IMG/VR virus record: IMGVR_UViG_3300020195_000423
Span: 1 to 24,251 of that record
DNA: 24,251 nucleotides
Strand: one strand, 5' to 3'
Source: a virus
The notes beneath the pieces are model-generated. The model was not told the origin of the DNA. It saw only the letters and a list, made by a program, of their open reading frames with translations, and ran no database searches. Positions 2,719-24,251 of the stretch are shown piece by piece; the stretch's first letter is position 1, and each line of letters starts with the position of its first letter. The position numbers were made by a program, and so were the translations under genes.

Positions 2719-2934
2719 ATGCATGACAAAATAAAAAACATTCTAGAGCGCGAAATCTCTCGGCTAAATGTGACATCCACTGGCCGAGGACTGGATGAGT
2801 CTGAAGTTCGCTCACTCATCTCACTTATAAAAGCGTTTCAACAGTTCATAGGCGAGACACCCAAGGATTCCGACAAATCCTCTCCTGCCGTGTCCCCGTT
2901 AAATGAGTTATTAGATGGAATCACCAACGAGTAA
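2719..2934 (+). CDS. Possible small terminase subunit-like protein
   Basis: The product is 71 residues from the ATG at 2719. The frame stays open upstream to a GTG at 2617, but that extension is low-complexity and overlaps the hairpin region, and neither start has a clear ribosome binding site. The protein is helical and charged: one helix near residues 2-16 (DKIKNILEREISRL), a second near 26-43 (ESEVRSLISLIKAFQQF), and a Pro/Ser-rich tail. Short helical proteins of this kind directly before the large terminase are often the DNA-recognising small subunit. It is shorter than typical small subunits, so the role is inferred from position. Its last 20 bases overlap the large terminase gene. Confidence 0.5.
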   Translation: MHDKIKNILEREISRLNVTSTGRGLDESEVRSLISLIKAFQQFIGETPKDSDKSSPAVSPLNELLDGITNE

Positions 2935-3745
2935 GAAAATGGACGCCAGTATAACACTTCGCGAGCGACAAGCCGAGCTGTGGCGGCGGGGAATCCTTGC
3001 GCCGTGGAAGCTGCACTCGGTACAAAAAGAAATTTACGAACTGATTAATGCATGTGCCGCGAAGAAGTTTGTGATTAACGCAGGACGGCGAAGTGGAAAA
3101 TCGTGGCTGCTTGTACTTATGTGCATCGAGTACGCAATAAAGAACCCTGGAAGTGACATTAAATTCGCGACCCCCACAATGCGACAGACACGCAAGATTA
3201 TTAACCCACTGTTTCGTAACCTGCTGGCAAACTGCCCCAAACATCTGCGCCCGAAGTACAAAACATTCGACAGCGCGTGGGAATTTCCCAACGGATCTGT
3301 AATCACGGTAGCAGGATGTGACGGAGCTAACGCAGATGCATTGCGCGGTACTCAGGCACATTTGTCTGTAGTGGATGAGGCCGGGTTTGTTGACCCAGAA
3401 GTCCTATCATACGTGGTGCAAGACGTTCTGTTGCCTCAGTCTCTGCTTACGGGCGGCAGAATTATTCTATCCAGTACGCCCCCTGTGTCAGGTGCTCACC
3501 CATTTATGCGGTTTGTTGAGGCAGCCATTGCTGAGGGTGCCTACGTAAAGAAGACCATTTACGACAACCCCATGGTTTCCCCAGCACAGCTAGAAGAATT
3601 TAAGCGGGAAGCAGGCGGAGAAAATTCTAGTACGTGGCGGCGCGAGTACTGCTGCATCGAAGGAAATACGAAGCTAACGGTACGCACGGCGGACGGCGAA
3701 ATCAGAACCATGACTGTAAGGGAGTTAAAACGTGAATTACGCTAA
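2915..3745 (+). CDS. terL: Large terminase, ATPase half with intein N-fragment
   Basis: This 276-residue product is the N-terminal half of the phage DNA-packaging motor. Walker A is AGRRSGKS (residues 56-63), Walker B is LSVVDEAGF (150-158, Asp154-Glu155), and the coupling motif SSTP is at 186-189. Residues 1-246 are terminase and end in WRREYC. Residues 247-276 begin with Cys247-IEGNT and have the look of an intein N-fragment, ending in a stop at 3743-3745. The nuclease half is missing and is supplied by the next gene, which starts 14 bases upstream of this stop in another frame. Alone, this half would lack the nuclease. The start is uncertain: ATG 2915 overlaps the previous gene, and ATG 2939 is an alternative that would remove eight residues. 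Confidence 0.9.
   Translation: MESPTSKKMDASITLRERQAELWRRGILAPWKLHSVQKEIYELINACAAKKFVINAGRRSGKSWLLVLMCIEYAIKNPGSDIKFATPTMRQTRKIINPLFRNLLANCPKHLRPKYKTFDSAWEFPNGSVITVAGCDGANADALRGTQAHLSVVDEAGFVDPEVLSYVVQDVLLPQSLLTGGRIILSSTPPVSGAHPFMRFVEAAIAEGAYVKKTIYDNPMVSPAQLEEFKREAGGENSSTWRREYCCIEGNTKLTVRTADGEIRTMTVRELKRELR
3653..3742 (+). other. Split-intein N-fragment (30 residues)
   Basis: This segment codes for residues 247-276 of the ATPase half. It begins with the splice-site cysteine (codon 3653-3655) followed by IEGNT, then two short strands and a helix (VRELKREL). From memory, the pattern Cys-x-x-Gly-(Asp/Asn)-Thr and a length of 25-30 residues match the atypical N-fragment of the AceL-TerL split intein from an Ace Lake terminase. 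The cysteine before it (residue 246) is assigned to the terminase because joining at 246/247 restores REYC-CEFV, a usual terminase sequence at this point. Confidence 0.8.
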
Positions 3746-5144
3746 AATTTACGCCACTCTCATAGCAAGGGGTAGATGCCGTAAACTTGCAGGATACCAC
3801 GAGGTCCACCACATAATTCCTAAATGCATGGGTGGAAGTAATAGTGCTGACAATCTTGTGTCGCTTACGGCAAAAGAGCACTTTATCACACATCATCTTC
3901 TTATAAAGATGTTTCCTGATAACCGCGGACTCAAATTTGCTTTTGGGAGTATGTCTAGGTCCAACAGCAAGCAACTTAGATACACTCCTAATTCATATGA
4001 AGCAGTAAAAAAAGCAAACGCTGAGGCGCTCTCTTCATTACATAAAGGCCGTATTTGTTCTGAATTGACTAGAAGCAGAATGAGCGCAGCAGCGAAAGTT
4101 TCGGCTACCGTCAAGGAAAAAAATAAGCCTTCATTCAATTGTAAGAACTTAGAAATATTAACTCCTTCAGGATTCAGGCCGTTCGATGGGGTTGCATATA
4201 CGGGGCTAATTCCTTGCCTTGAGTTTCATTTATCAAATGGGCTTTCTGTAACAGTATCGGCCAAGCACAGATTTGATGCATCCGAAAAGAAGGCGACTGA
4301 GTACGTTATAGGCGACTGTCTTCTTACGGATTCAGGATACGCCGATATCACAGGAATTGTATCTGTAGGAAGGAAGCAGACATTCGACATCCTGGAGGTA
4401 GGCGGCGGCCATCTATTTTTCGGCAACAACATAGCACACCACAACTGTGAATTCGTCGTGGATGTCAATCGCAGCGTTGTTCCAGAAGCAACCGATGCAC
4501 ATATGGAACGCATCACATACGAAGTTGTAAAACCGCCATTTTATTTGCCAACAACTGGCATCGATCTTGGATACACAGACGGAACTGGAGCTGTGTTCGG
4601 ATACTACAACTTTAAGCTAGACAAACTTGTAATCGAAGACGAACTGTTTCTGGCTCGCACCACATCCGACAAGATTATCGCAGAGACAAAACGTATCGAA
4701 GTACTACATTGGGGCAAGGATCGCCCACCCCCACAAAGAATCGTGGACGGCCCTGCCCTAGCCATAGCCGACATGGCAGCAGTACACAAGTTTTCTTGTC
4801 GCGCCCCCGATAAAACGGATTTGGCGGCCAATATCAACCGGCTCAGGATGTTTATCAACGACGAGAGACTGATCATCAATCCTCGATGCCGCAACCTGAT
4901 ATCGCAGCTCAAGTTTGCTATTTGGAAAGATGATTCGCGCAAGACTTTTGCCAGGGACAGCGGCGGATACCACTTCGATGTACTGGCCGCGCTCATGTAT
5001 TTCTGCAAACACGTTGACATGAGTTCCAACCCGTTCCCAGCTGGATATGGATACGACCCATTCACTGATTTCGGATACCCACGAGACAATGAATCAAGCA
5101 CAACATCAATTATACGACGCATGTTTTCCTTAAACCGCCGCTAA
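3732..5144 (+). CDS. terL: HNH endonuclease - intein C-fragment - terminase nuclease half
   Basis: The 470-residue product has three parts. Residues 1 to about 137 form an HNH homing endonuclease (His26-His27, Asn41, His50) with a NUMOD3-like stretch at 104-122 (HKGRICSELTRSRMSAAAK). Residues about 138-238 are an intein C-fragment: His179 in SAKHRF, then GHLFFGNN and a final HHN ending at Asn238. Residues 239-470 are the terminase nuclease, starting with Cys239-EFVVDVN and holding likely metal-binding Asp278 (GIDLGYTD), Asp339 (IVDG) and Asp416 (HFDVLAAL). The GTG start is supported by AAGGGAG (3718-3724) seven bases upstream. Trans-splicing to the previous product would give a terminase of about 478 residues and release HNH-intein. 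A frameshift fusion is possible but less likely. Confidence 0.9.
   Translation: MNYAKIYATLIARGRCRKLAGYHEVHHIIPKCMGGSNSADNLVSLTAKEHFITHHLLIKMFPDNRGLKFAFGSMSRSNSKQLRYTPNSYEAVKKANAEALSSLHKGRICSELTRSRMSAAAKVSATVKEKNKPSFNCKNLEILTPSGFRPFDGVAYTGLIPCLEFHLSNGLSVTVSAKHRFDASEKKATEYVIGDCLLTDSGYADITGIVSVGRKQTFDILEVGGGHLFFGNNIAHHNCEFVVDVNRSVVPEATDAHMERITYEVVKPPFYLPTTGIDLGYTDGTGAVFGYYNFKLDKLVIEDELFLARTTSDKIIAETKRIEVLHWGKDRPPPQRIVDGPALAIADMAAVHKFSCRAPDKTDLAANINRLRMFINDERLIINPRCRNLISQLKFAIWKDDSRKTFARDSGGYHFDVLAALMYFCKHVDMSSNPFPAGYGYDPFTDFGYPRDNESSTTSIIRRMFSLNRR
4143..4445 (+). other. Split-intein C-fragment (about 101 residues)
   Basis: The fragment covers roughly residues 138-238 of the second gene. It starts near KNLEILTPSGFRPFDG, which resembles the start of the AceL-TerL C-fragment as I remember it. 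The block B histidine is present (His179 in SAKHRF), but the usual threonine three residues before it is valine (Val176). The C-terminal end has the expected strand (FDILEV), the GHLFFGNN loop, penultimate His237 and terminal Asn238. Cys239 follows as the +1 residue needed for transesterification. The catalytic positions therefore look intact apart from the block B change. The exact N-terminal border is approximate. Confidence 0.8.
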
Positions 5145-10399: not shown

Positions 10400-13312
10400 A
10401 TGGCAACATCTGTCTCAGTAAATAATACAACCTACTCCGTACCAGCTCGTGGCGACAATACGTGGAGCGGCGCAGCTGGTGTTGACGGTCTTCTAATCGC
10501 ACTTGCTACCCACACGCTTCAAGTCACTGGCGGAACTTTCACGTTGCAGGCCGAAGTTAACACTGGAGCAACCTATGGCTTCAAACTTCCCTATGTGAAA
10601 ACCGCCACGGCCAATCCATCTACTACTGGTGTTATCAGGCTGGCCAACAATGAGGGTGCGGGCTGGCGAAATGCCGCAAATAATGCCGATCTACTTCTCC
10701 GCGTGAACGCAACCAATATTCTGGAATTCAACGGCAATCCTCTAGTGACGCTGGCTCTCGGAGTAGCTGATACGGCGCTGCGAATGAATGCGGCTGGAAC
10801 TGCGTATGAGTTTGCAAAGATAGTAAACGCAAACGTAGATAATGCAGCGGCTATTGCATATTCCAAACTAAATCTTGCGACCAGCATAGTTAACGCAGAC
10901 ATTGGTGCAGCGGCTGCAATTGCCTATTCCAAGTTAAACCTCGGAACTAGTATTGTGAATGCCGACATCTCTGCCAGTGCTGCGATTGATTATTCCAAGT
11001 TAAACCTAGCGACGAGTATCGTTAACGCAGACATTGGCGCGGCTGCGGCTATTGCACGCTCGAAAATAGCAGCAGGCACGGCTAGTCATGTTGTCATCCA
11101 CGACGGATCGGGCCTCCTTTCTAGCGAGGCTGCTCTAGCGATCACTAGGGGTGGCACTGGGCAGGCTACTGCCAATGCAGCATTAAACGCGATTCTTCCG
11201 ACCCAAACCGCCAATCGTCTTTTAAAATCAGATGGCACTAATACTACTTTTTCACAGGCCGTCCTTACTACGGACGTAAGCGGTACACTTCCGATTGCAA
11301 ACGGAGGCACTGGGCAAACTGCTGCTAATGCGGCATTTGGCGCTTTGTCTCCTATGACTACCAACGGGGATTTGACGATTAGATCTGGCGGTGTTCCGGC
11401 TCGCTTAGGTGTCGGCGTAGATGGTCAGTCTCTTCGAGTCGTGTCGGGAGCTCCAGCTTGGGCAGACGGCGGAGCCGGATCTGGCGAGATAAATTTAATT
11501 GATAACCCTTCGGCTTCTAGTAACACAACCGGCTGGACTGCTGCCACAAATCACACTGTAACCAGGCTTACCGATGGCTCACCGCTTGGCGCTCAGACAT
11601 CAACGGCTTTCCGCTTCGCTAAGACGGTCGCTGCCTCTACTACAGAGTCTTCTACATCAGGCATCTATTATCCGTTCACGGTTCCGGTTGGACTACGAAA
11701 CACCCCGCTTAAAATTCAACCATACGTTATCGTCCCTGCTACTGGCGTTTGGCGCGTATCTGTTTATGACGGCACGACTAGGCTTTCTCTGCGATCTGAT
11801 ACGAGCGGGGCAACTACACTTCCCGCAGGCTTCACGGGCAGAGTTCAGCTAGTTTTCGATACCACGGCTTCTTCGGCTTACACGCTGTCATTCACTGAAA
11901 CTTCAGGCGTTATTTCTGACCTAGACGCTACAAATATCATCGTGGGTCCGGGAATACAGCCACAGGGTGCAGTGGTTGGGCCAAAGGTAGATTTCACCCC
12001 TGTTTTTTCATCAACTAGTTTGGGAACTCTCAGCTCCGTAACTGCATCCTACCAAAGGGTGGGGAGCCGACTTAACGTAATGGCTAATTTCAATGCGGGA
12101 ACGGTCACAAGTTCGACTCTCACAATGATTTTACCAGACAGCCTCACAGTAAATTCCTTGGGACTTGTGGGGAGCTGGCAAAGGGGAAACTCTACCGCTA
12201 GTACCAGAAAAAGAGGGGCTATAATTACGGCAGTTATAAATGACTCCGTCGTGTATTTAACTAATGATGACTACACCCAAGCAGAAAACCCATTTTCGGG
12301 CAGAACAGCCAACAGTATTTTTCTAAGTGCAGATCAAGTCTCGTTAAACTTTTCTGTTGAGATTTCGCAATGGGCTGGCTCCGGCACTGTAAATTTAGGG
12401 CAAAACGATGTTGAGTATGCATCTGTTGCGGGAACTTGGGACGCAGATACTTCAACCACTGTATACGGACCTGCTGGCGCTGCTATGGGTACAGGCGGCA
12501 ATATTACAGCCACAGCGGGCAGAACAAAAACAATCACATGGCAAACGCCTGTGCAAGCTACTGACAGAGTTCAAGTCTGGGGTTCAAAAGATCAAGTACA
12601 GTGGTTTTTAATAAACGACTCCCAGCTAGGCTCATCCAATGCCTCGGTTATAAAAAGCCAAGACTCAGTAGGGAATGTTATAGCAGGCGTTTCAGTTAGA
12701 CCGGGCGCAAGCGTTACTCAATCTGTTGTTCACTTTGCTAGATTTCTTTCAATGGCGAACGACGATAGTCCTACAGTGGACTGGCCAACTTCGTCAGCTT
12801 TTTGGGTGGCGACTAAAGGGGCTTCGGGCGCTGTTGTTGGTTATGGCCACGCTACTGCAACTGCTTCGGGGTTTGTTGCGGCAAGTGGCTCGATTGGTAC
12901 CACAAGACTCGGCGGCCAAAGTGGATACGGCTCAACCAACACACACATTAGACGATTCTCAACGGTTATAACAAACACCTCTACGGACGTAACAATCACG
13001 CAGTCAGCAGCAAACGGTGAGTCTTTTACTATCGGAAGAGCGGGCCTGTATTCGATCAGCTATACCGACGCGTGCAGTGCTAGCTGTAACATGGGGATCA
13101 GTAGAAATAGCGCTCAATTGACAACCAGCATTGCAGCGATAACGCAAGCTGACAGACTGTTTTTAATGTCTCCTACTGGTAACGACCTATTTTTAACGGG
13201 GTCAATCATAATTTATCTAGCGGCTGGTGACGTGCTTAGAGCGCATGGGGATGCAACTTCTGCGGCGACTAGCACCACAAGGACACAGCTAACGATACAG
13301 AGAATCTATTAA
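10400..13312 (+). CDS. Tail fibre / receptor-binding protein
   Basis: The 970-residue product is modular. Residues 1 to about 115 look like a virion-attachment domain (VNNTTYSVPARGDNTWSGAA, later TTGVIRLANNEGAGWRNAAN). Residues about 152-225 hold 22-residue tandem repeats. Two GGTGQ motifs near 251 and 301 are typical of phage fibre shafts. The part after about 530 is beta-rich, and the last 120 residues (with FTIGRAGLYSISYTD) resemble a C1q/TNF-like trimer head. It should bind the host surface, so the C-terminal half probably sets host range. The region from about 11990 on is more A/T-rich than the repeat part, fitting module exchange. GAGGG four bases before the ATG is a close-set binding site. 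Confidence 0.85.
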   Translation: MATSVSVNNTTYSVPARGDNTWSGAAGVDGLLIALATHTLQVTGGTFTLQAEVNTGATYGFKLPYVKTATANPSTTGVIRLANNEGAGWRNAANNADLLLRVNATNILEFNGNPLVTLALGVADTALRMNAAGTAYEFAKIVNANVDNAAAIAYSKLNLATSIVNADIGAAAAIAYSKLNLGTSIVNADISASAAIDYSKLNLATSIVNADIGAAAAIARSKIAAGTASHVVIHDGSGLLSSEAALAITRGGTGQATANAALNAILPTQTANRLLKSDGTNTTFSQAVLTTDVSGTLPIANGGTGQTAANAAFGALSPMTTNGDLTIRSGGVPARLGVGVDGQSLRVVSGAPAWADGGAGSGEINLIDNPSASSNTTGWTAATNHTVTRLTDGSPLGAQTSTAFRFAKTVAASTTESSTSGIYYPFTVPVGLRNTPLKIQPYVIVPATGVWRVSVYDGTTRLSLRSDTSGATTLPAGFTGRVQLVFDTTASSAYTLSFTETSGVISDLDATNIIVGPGIQPQGAVVGPKVDFTPVFSSTSLGTLSSVTASYQRVGSRLNVMANFNAGTVTSSTLTMILPDSLTVNSLGLVGSWQRGNSTASTRKRGAIITAVINDSVVYLTNDDYTQAENPFSGRTANSIFLSADQVSLNFSVEISQWAGSGTVNLGQNDVEYASVAGTWDADTSTTVYGPAGAAMGTGGNITATAGRTKTITWQTPVQATDRVQVWGSKDQVQWFLINDSQLGSSNASVIKSQDSVGNVIAGVSVRPGASVTQSVVHFARFLSMANDDSPTVDWPTSSAFWVATKGASGAVVGYGHATATASGFVAASGSIGTTRLGGQSGYGSTNTHIRRFSTVITNTSTDVTITQSAANGESFTIGRAGLYSISYTDACSASCNMGISRNSAQLTTSIAAITQADRLFLMSPTGNDLFLTGSIIIYLAAGDVLRAHGDATSAATSTTRTQLTIQRIY
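10853..11065 (+). repeat. 66-bp tandem repeats in the fibre gene
   Basis: Repeat units start at 10853, 10919, 10985 and 11051, with an exact 66-base period, the fourth being partial. Each codes for 22 residues with the core IAYSKLNLATSIVNADIGA. Codons at matching positions differ between units, so the repeats are not a recent duplication. They would form a regular trimeric shaft, and unit number may change fibre length. Confidence 0.85.
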
Positions 13313-13568: not shown

Positions 13569-14474
13569 ATGTCAGAGTCCTTCACAACTGAAGAGCTGCT
13601 GTCCGACATAAAGCAGCGTGCAATGGTCCCTACCGACCAGACCACATTTACTTCGTCTGATCTGCTGCGTTTTGCTACAGATGAGCTGCGTATGGCGTTA
13701 CTGCCAACGCTTCTTGCTGAACGTGAGGAATTTTACCTTTCCGAAACAGGCGCAACTCAGTCTATAGTCGCATCGCAGGCTGCGTACCAAATACCGGCGC
13801 GAGCTGTAGGACAAATGCTGCGCGACGTGTTGTTGGTAGACAGTGACAGCAGAGTGTACAATCTTAAGCGTATCGAATATGACGAGATACCCAACTATCA
13901 GTTTTCTGGAACTGGCACTCCCGAATTTTTCTGCTTGCGCAACAACAAAATTGTACTGTTTCCTACACCCAGCACTACAGCTGCGTCTGCCTATGATCTA
14001 CTTACTCCGTACTACACTCGCCCATCAAAACTCATCGAAGTAACTGCTGCGGCGCAAGTCGCGTCGATGGCAGGAAGCACTGTAACGGTAACTTCACTTC
14101 CGTCAACCATAGCTAACGGTGCCTCAATCGACTTTATTCGTGACACAGGTGGGTTTGAATGTCTCGCCATTGATCAGACTATAACTGGTGTGGCAGGAAC
14201 TGTGCTGACATTTGCCAGTGTGCCAACTGATTTAACGGTAGGCGATTGGGTCGCACTTGCTGGCCAGTCCCCTATCCCTCAACTTCCAGCTGAACTACAT
14301 CCATTATTGGCCGAGCGTGTTGCACGCAAAGTTATGAAATCAATCGGCGACATAAACGGCGTCAAGATGTCCGATCAAATAATCGCAGAAATGACAGACG
14401 GCGCATCTAAAATGACAAGCCCGCGTGTTCACGGCGAATCAAAACGAGTCGTAAGCCGAATTTTTTGGCGGTAA
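13569..14474 (+). CDS. Head-tail connector (adaptor) protein
   Basis: The 301-residue product probably forms the ring below the portal. The N-terminal helical part (SFTTEELLSDIKQRAMVP, then SSDLLRFATDELRMALLP) and the C-terminal helical part (PAELHPLLAERVARKVMKSI, ending SKRVVSRIFWR) have the look of podovirus tail-tube A or adaptor proteins, with a beta-rich insertion between (about 150-235). It precedes the large nozzle-like protein, the usual order of these two. GGGAG lies seven bases before the ATG, and only three bases separate it from the previous stop. The assignment is by composition and order. Confidence 0.6.
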   Translation: MSESFTTEELLSDIKQRAMVPTDQTTFTSSDLLRFATDELRMALLPTLLAEREEFYLSETGATQSIVASQAAYQIPARAVGQMLRDVLLVDSDSRVYNLKRIEYDEIPNYQFSGTGTPEFFCLRNNKIVLFPTPSTTAASAYDLLTPYYTRPSKLIEVTAAAQVASMAGSTVTVTSLPSTIANGASIDFIRDTGGFECLAIDQTITGVAGTVLTFASVPTDLTVGDWVALAGQSPIPQLPAELHPLLAERVARKVMKSIGDINGVKMSDQIIAEMTDGASKMTSPRVHGESKRVVSRIFWR

Positions 14475-23606: not shown

Positions 23607-23631
23607 AGGTGCGTATGTGCATACTTTTAGG
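23602..23631. repeat. CTTTTAGG direct repeat beside integrase
   Basis: The word CTTTTAGG occurs at 23602-23609 and again at 23624-23631, 22 bases apart, which is about two helical turns. It overlaps the end of the integrase gene. The spacing could suit protein binding on one DNA face, for example integrase arm sites, but two copies of eight bases may also be chance. Confidence 0.3.
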
Positions 23632-24251
23632 CGTCTAAATCTAGCTCAACCCAGTCATCCTCATCCCCTAGATCGTCCGGTCTGCGAACGTATAGGGCTG
23701 TTGTGCTAGGGTCTGAATGACGTGCGTGGTTCTTTAGGGCAGTGAAGTCCATACCCCCGTAATGTCCTAGCCAGTAGATACTAGCCCTTCTTAGATCCTT
23801 AATGGTAATTCCAGGAAAACCCTCACGGCCCCATACCTTGTAAAGCCAATCCGGTCTTGTAGTCCAAATTGGTTCGGTTGGTGGCAAATCCCGCAACAGC
23901 TCTACGATCTCCCTTGCAGCTCTTTCATCAAAGCATGCTACCCATCCAGTCGAGTTATTCTTCGGCCCCTTGATATTCTTACCGCTCTTTTGTTTAGTTA
24001 TCTTCGCAGCAAATCGGCTATACAGCTTTGCCTTGGCCATGACTTTGCAGCACTCCAGCCCCGTTACCTTTGATCCACCCTTAAAATCAGATGGGCAGAT
24101 GGCTGCCAGCTCCTGGGAGCGGAGACTAAAGAAGAAGCCAATTAACGCAATCAGCCGTATTTTTGGTGATCCATAAACGTGGTCTAATACATCTTTAGGC
24201 GTAATAGTGAATTTCAGCGGAGTCTTACTTCCGCCAACTATCGCGTTACGT
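23627..24251 (-). CDS. Tyrosine recombinase (phage integrase), C-terminal part
   Basis: The reading frame is open to the right window edge; about 207 codons are seen and the N-terminal DNA-binding part lies outside. An internal ATG at 24040 is not the true start, because the frame upstream contains the box I arginine in SLRSQELAAICPSDF (Arg codon near 24119-24121). Further family marks are a lysine in the beta-hairpin region, IKDLRRAS (Lys in place of the usual His, then Arg), HARHS, and the nucleophile Tyr in STTALYVRR. The C-terminal tail is acidic (DDLGDEDDWVELDLD). These enzymes integrate and excise phage DNA at attachment sites. The gene is convergent to the virion operon. The set of catalytic residues looks complete. 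Confidence 0.85.
   Translation of the reverse strand, partial: RNAIVGGSKTPLKFTITPKDVLDHVYGSPKIRLIALIGFFFSLRSQELAAICPSDFKGGSKVTGLECCKVMAKAKLYSRFAAKITKQKSGKNIKGPKNNSTGWVACFDERAAREIVELLRDLPPTEPIWTTRPDWLYKVWGREGFPGITIKDLRRASIYWLGHYGGMDFTALKNHARHSDPSTTALYVRRPDDLGDEDDWVELDLDA

What the first reader, a model, noticed from the sequence alone, without database searches (positions are those of the whole stretch)
2915..5144. Large terminase encoded as two genes joined by an atypical split intein
Seen: the ATPase half ends with 30 residues that begin Cys-IEGNT and then stop. The nuclease half starts at Cys239, directly behind an intein-like HHN end. Joining the parts restores REYC-CEFVVDVN, a normal terminase sequence, and both halves keep their motifs (Walker A and B, three nuclease Asp). 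Known: atypical split inteins with very short N-fragments, such as AceL-TerL, occur in phage terminases. Inferred: the active packaging motor depends on protein trans-splicing. A very short N-fragment also makes such inteins of practical interest.
Basis: partly seen in the sequence, partly recalled or inferred. Interest (0 to 1): 0.88.

Follow-up and report, generated by a model that had tools for sequence, protein, structure and literature searches.

The report
Split packaging motor gene with intein
This virus of bacteria encodes its DNA-packaging motor as two separate proteins that a self-splicing element (a split intein) is predicted to stitch together, with a DNA-cutting "homing" enzyme built into the second half; the arrangement is real, but close parallels exist in other bacterial viruses.

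Summary
ORF1 (2915-3745) is the ATPase half of a large terminase plus a 30-residue N-intein. ORF2 (3732-5144) ends in a C-intein of the AceL/GOS-TerL ("Cat") class followed by the terminase nuclease half. Evidence: a C-intein profile built without the window (E 1.5e-16); an N-intein profile built without the window (only convincing hit in the window, exactly at C247); a predicted fold closest to the Cat intein (6dsl, Z 13.5, 1.6 A); and 17 related terminases that run uninterrupted through the splice point. A second, 99.3% identical contig keeps the same split.

The ORF2 GTG coincides with the natural start of this endonuclease family and has a strong ribosome-binding site, so it is a real second gene rather than a frameshift error. 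Split TerL inteins with varied nucleases at the break occur in many phages, and Aeromonas phage PX29 already carries a GIY-YIG nuclease fused to its C-intein. This is a new, divergent member of a known kind. Splicing itself is not demonstrated.

The parts
2915..3652 (+). Terminase large subunit, N-extein (ATPase half, residues 1-246)
   Evidence: Terminase_6N E 4e-13, phrog_2 E 1e-23; aligns with 17 contiguous terminases
3653..3742 (+). IntN, 30 residues (C247-R276); stop codon 3743-3745
   Evidence: Leave-out IntN profile hits ORF1 247-272, E 1.2e-4, only significant hit of 712 window ORFs; segment absent from relatives
3717..3724 (+). Shine-Dalgarno TAAGGGAG of ORF2, inside the IntN codons
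   Evidence: -7.9 kcal/mol with anti-SD; 3.6% of candidate starts in the window do as well
3732..5144 (+). ORF2: HNH endonuclease - IntC - TerL nuclease half, GTG start, overlaps ORF1 by 14 nt
   Evidence: GTG aligns with the start codon of MobE-like relatives
3732..4121 (+). MobE-type HNH homing endonuclease domain, about 130 residues (HNH residues H26, H27, N41, H50, H54)
   Evidence: phrog_655 E 4e-43, Pfam HNH E 5e-5, T4 MobE 43% identity; catalytic residues invariant
4140..4445 (+). IntC, about 102 residues, ends HHN (N238)
   Evidence: 6dsl CatC E 4e-8, leave-out profile E 1.5e-16, fold Z 13.5 to 6dsl
4446..5141 (+). Terminase large subunit, C-extein (nuclease half, from the +1 residue C239)
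   Evidence: tblastn to 17 contiguous terminases; nuclease motifs aligned
3720..3761 (+). Predicted RNA hairpin covering the SD and GTG of ORF2 (possible translational coupling; weak)
   Evidence: -15.5 kcal/mol, z -2.6, 8 of 200 shuffles as good; not seen at the corresponding place in five related loci

Best explanation
The large terminase is made as two proteins. Protein 1 is the ATPase half carrying a 30-residue IntN. Protein 2 is a MobE-type HNH homing endonuclease, then a 102-residue IntC, then the nuclease half. IntN docks into IntC and completes the HINT fold. Cys247 and Cys239 act as the two nucleophiles and the terminal Asn238 of IntC cyclises, leaving a 478-aa terminase joined ...REYC-CEF.... 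The excised IntC stays attached to the endonuclease, which can cut intein-free terminase genes of co-infecting phages and so spread the cassette. ORF2 is translated from its own GTG by ribosomes that finish ORF1 (14-nt overlap). Shown: the genes, domain identities, intact catalytic residues, intein-free relatives. Inferred: splicing, homing, translational coupling.
For: Sequence match to the Cat atypical split intein; leave-out profiles for both halves; predicted IntC fold closest to 6dsl, Z 13.5, 1.6 A over 104 residues; all splicing residues present (Cys1, block-B His, HHN, +1 Cys); 17 relatives contiguous through the joint; the same insertion point as in the AceL-like loci L106-L114; second contig with the same split and 100% identical proteins; start codon and SD of ORF2; parallel two-gene layout in Aeromonas phage PX29.
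Against: No expression or splicing data. IntC is only 23-36% identical to other members. The residue before the intein is Cys where relatives mostly have Leu, so the local extein is unusual. No other HNH-IntC fusion was found.
Confidence: 0.88

Rival explanations
1. The intein is contiguous: a +1 ribosomal frameshift within 3729-3745 joins IntN to the endonuclease-IntC frame, and the intein splices in cis like an ordinary endonuclease-bearing intein.
For: The frames overlap for 14 nt and ORF2 is open throughout; contiguous versions of this intein class exist in vB_VmeM-32 and SRB7757.
Against: ORF2 has its own SD and a GTG that coincides with the start codon of the MobE-like family; no obvious slippery sequence in the overlap; split layouts with similar overlaps are the rule in the class.
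Confidence: 0.05
2. The two halves work as a non-covalent 'gene in pieces', as reported for ribonucleotide reductase of Aeromonas phage Aeh1 interrupted by mobE, and the intein halves are relics.
For: A MobE-type endonuclease is involved here too; the Aeh1 case is cited in PMC3322345 and PMC10448857.
Against: Every splicing residue is kept, both intein halves match leave-out profiles, and between the two contigs the proteins are identical despite synonymous change. Relics would be expected to decay.
Confidence: 0.04
3. The split is a sequencing or assembly error in a contiguous intein.
For: The window is a single contig known from assembly only.
Against: A separate contig with 45 mismatches and 9 gaps over 8.4 kb has the identical junction. 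A good SD and a family-conserved start codon at the junction would be a coincidence under an error.
Confidence: 0.02

Closest known systems
AceL-TerL / GOS-TerL atypical split inteins and their consensus Cat (PDB 6dsl)
   Same: Short IntN (25-37 aa known, 30 here), IntC of about 104 aa (102 here), host gene TerL, Cys1/Cys+1, C-extein starting CEF, same fold
   Different: About 30% identity in IntC; a homing endonuclease is fused in front of IntC; the terminase belongs to a different, non-T4-like lineage
Aeromonas phage PX29 terminase genes 17A/17B (GU396103.1)
   Same: Two overlapping genes, TerL-N+IntN and endonuclease+IntC+TerL-C, GTG start of the second gene inside IntN codons
   Different: Nuclease is GIY-YIG/SegE-like with NUMOD3 instead of HNH; T4-like jumbo phage; IntC 28% identical
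MobE-type HNH homing endonucleases (phage T4 MobE and relatives; PHROG 655)
   Same: HNH domain about 40-59% identical, same N-terminus, catalytic residues kept
   Different: Relatives are stand-alone genes with their own C-terminal tails; none of 79 other loci examined runs into a C-intein
T-even and Campylobacter phage TerL split inteins (SG1, TG1, PspYZU05, kaaroe, CP21, IBB_35)
   Same: Same IntN/IntC class, genes overlapping by a few to about 30 nt, nuclease at the break; IBB_35 has a MobE-type nuclease in the locus
   Different: Most use another insertion point in TerL (after the Walker B DE); nuclease separate or fused on the N side
Fractured genes (Dassa et al. 2009, known here only through citations)
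   Same: Split intein halves with a homing endonuclease between them
   Different: The endonuclease is in frame with IntC rather than a separate gene

Membership tests
Atypical split intein, AceL/GOS-TerL (Cat) class | Very short IntN and IntC of about 100 residues | tested here: met
   30 and about 102 residues
Atypical split intein, AceL/GOS-TerL (Cat) class | Homology of IntC and IntN to the class | tested here: met
   6dsl E 4e-8; leave-out profiles E 1.5e-16 and 1.2e-4
Atypical split intein, AceL/GOS-TerL (Cat) class | HINT fold | tested here: met
   Predicted IntC: best match 6dsl, Z 13.5, 1.6 A over 104 residues; next rows are other inteins
Atypical split intein, AceL/GOS-TerL (Cat) class | Catalytic residues Cys1, block-B His, terminal Asn, +1 Cys | tested here: met
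   C247; H in SAKH; HHN; C239
Atypical split intein, AceL/GOS-TerL (Cat) class | Trans-splicing activity | not testable with these tools
   Needs expression
MobE-type HNH homing endonuclease | HNH domain of the family with intact catalytic residues | tested here: met
   phrog_655 E 4e-43; H26, H27, N41, H50, H54 kept
MobE-type HNH homing endonuclease | C-terminal DNA-binding tail | tested here: inconclusive
   Only one NUMOD3-like stretch (KGRICSELTRSRMSAAAK, read by eye) before IntC; relatives are about 200-280 aa
MobE-type HNH homing endonuclease | Site-specific cutting and homing | not testable with these tools
   Needs enzyme assay or mixed infection
Fractured gene with a separate endonuclease gene between split intein halves | Endonuclease is a separate gene with its own start and stop | tested here: not met
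   It has its own start but no stop and runs in frame into IntC; this is the PX29-like fused variant

The most novel reading that the evidence does not exclude
Fusing the homing endonuclease to the front of the C-intein locks it to an essential gene: IntC has no well-placed start of its own, so a stop or frameshift in the endonuclease would also abolish the terminase. Together with a start-site hairpin opened by ribosomes on ORF1, this would tie endonuclease output to terminase assembly and protect the selfish element from the usual decay.
Probability: 0.25. Interest if true: 0.6.

Novelty: new member of a known kind. Interest (0 to 1): 0.45.

Why it matters
It places the AceL-type split intein in a terminase lineage away from the T4-like phages and adds a very divergent sequence (at most about 36% identical to other C-inteins sampled) to a class used for protein labelling, where a short N-fragment is valuable. 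The survey also shows the break in TerL inteins filled by at least six nuclease families (HNH, GIY-YIG, TnsA/endonuclease I-like, T5orf172, DUF559, DUF7487), fused to either side or free. That makes the order of events, intein break first or nuclease insertion first, testable by comparison.

Tried and rejected
Frameshift or assembly error: rejected because of the second contig, the SD and the family-conserved start. IntC alone against Pfam, NCBIfam and PHROGs gave nothing useful. A single-sequence search with IntN against the PDB gave no hit, as it is too short, so a class profile was built. The designed-repeat-protein hits are chance matches. MW202458 (hit H1), matching 81% of ORF2 at 22% identity, is annotated as an ordinary large terminase and was not taken as a second fused case. 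A genome-contig scan found no relatives; repeating the viral scan with an 8-row alignment returned the same 15 loci. The first mixed alignment for folding (A3) misplaced the IntC rows and was not used. The hairpin at the ORF2 start was not seen in five related loci. A C-intein tree had low support for the window's place and was not used as evidence. The Dassa 2009 paper is not held.

Full report
WHAT IS THERE. Two plus-strand ORFs overlap by 14 nt: ORF1 2915-3745 (276 aa) and ORF2 3732-5144 (GTG start, 470 aa). ORF1 carries the terminase ATPase domain (Terminase_6N E 4e-13; phrog_2 E 1e-23) and ends with a 30-residue segment from Cys247. ORF2 holds, in order, an HNH endonuclease (phrog_655 'homing endonuclease' E 4e-43), an intein-like segment ending HHN, and the terminase nuclease half.

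INTEIN IDENTITY. A search of solved structures finds the consensus engineered atypical intein CatC (6dsl) at E 4e-8 over the whole IntC. A profile built from fifteen other C-inteins, window excluded, finds ORF2 139-239 at E 1.5e-16 for a search space of 100,000. A profile from eight other N-inteins, window excluded, has one significant hit among 712 window ORFs, ORF1 247-272 (E 1.2e-4), and none in the intein-free terminases. An AlphaFold2 model of IntC plus TerL-C has an all-beta IntC with pLDDT mostly 55-87; the TerL part is unreliable. Its best structural match is 6dsl, Z 13.5, 1.6 A over 104 residues, followed by other inteins. Cys1, the block-B His (SAKH), HHN and the +1 Cys are all present.

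EMPTY SITE. Seventeen related terminases from IMG/VR, about 32-45% identical, run straight through the joint with no insertion; most read REYLCE or similar, so the intein sits directly before a commonly conserved Cys. The same point (..EFE^C..SHN^CEFLGS) is used in the AceL-like loci L106-L114. Walker and nuclease motifs align in the spliced product.

WHY TWO REAL GENES. A separate contig, 99.3% identical over 8.4 kb with 45 mismatches and 9 gaps, has the same junction and 100% identical proteins in both ORFs. The GTG of ORF2 aligns with the start codon of nearly all free-standing MobE-like relatives examined, which begin M-N-Y or M-D-Y. It has TAAGGGAG seven nt upstream, pairing at -7.9 kcal/mol, a value reached by 3.6% of candidate starts in the window. 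No well-placed start lies directly before IntC: the nearest in-frame ATG (4080) lacks an SD, and ATG 3951 has one only about one nt away. So IntC is most likely made fused to the endonuclease, though a start at 3951 cannot be excluded.

THE ENDONUCLEASE. It is a MobE-type HNH enzyme (T4 MobE 43% identical) with H26, H27, N41, H50 and H54 intact. None of the 79 other MobE-like loci examined continues into a C-intein. In L061 and L071 such genes lie between the halves of a canonical split intein in a recombinase gene that looks like UvsX (named by inspection).

COMPARISON. TerL inteins of this class are common in phages (97 records by tblastn at E 0.01, nearly all under TerL annotations where shown). 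Layouts seen: separate nuclease gene (SG1, PspYZU05, TG1, SEA1, L102-L114); nuclease fused behind the N side (kaaroe, JK32, Thanatos-2, 1.244.A); no nuclease (EniLVp02); contiguous (vB_VmeM-32, SRB7757). Nucleases at the break include GIY-YIG, TnsA/endonuclease I-like, T5orf172, DUF559 and DUF7487. Aeromonas phage PX29 is annotated as gene 17A with N-intein and 17B with 'GIY-YIG endonuclease and C-intein', confirmed here by profiles. Campylobacter phage IBB_35 has a MobE-type nuclease in its TerL intein locus. So the split, a MobE nuclease in such an intein, and fusion to IntC each have precedents; the combination, the terminase lineage and the sequence (at most about 36% identity to any other C-intein sampled) are new. 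Searches of open papers found no description of an HNH-IntC fusion; subscription literature was not covered.

MECHANISM. From established intein chemistry: N-S shift at Cys247, transfer to Cys239, Asn238 cyclisation, S-N shift, giving the 478-aa motor protein and releasing IntN and HNH-IntC. Homing into intein-free terminase genes follows from the nuclease family and is inference. A predicted hairpin over the ORF2 start (-15.5 kcal/mol, z -2.6) could couple translation of the two genes, as gene overlaps and RBS-masking hairpins are described for T4-group homing endonucleases (PMC2988022). It was not seen in other loci and is weak.

VERDICT. Real, correctly read in its main point, enlarged by the fused homing endonuclease, and a new divergent member of a known kind.

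Noticed in passing
L061 3043-5249; L071 3050-5354: A recombinase gene that looks like UvsX is split by a canonical split intein (long IntN, short IntC) with a MobE-like endonuclease gene between the halves.
   Followed up: partly
L116 and L122 (Campylobacter phages IBB_35 and CP21): The terminase locus carries several stacked inteins of this class; in IBB_35 the gene annotated as MobE endonuclease holds a C-intein, a piece of terminase and a MobE-type nuclease.
   Followed up: partly
L105 2231-5188: One 986-aa open frame has three or more full C-intein-like matches in a row, so a terminase with three inteins seems likely.
   Followed up: no
13569-14474: SU10 adaptor domain (PF24175, E 4e-13), with a portal (phrog_156) and major head protein elsewhere in the window; suggests a podovirus-like head-tail module.
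   Followed up: partly
23627-24040, minus strand: 137-aa ORF reminiscent by eye of the C-terminal part of a tyrosine recombinase (..HARHSDPSTTALYVRRP..), but no Pfam or PHROG match.
   Followed up: partly
10400-13312: 970-aa ORF with near-identical internal repeats (AAIAYSKLNLATSIVNADI); no PHROG match.
   Followed up: no
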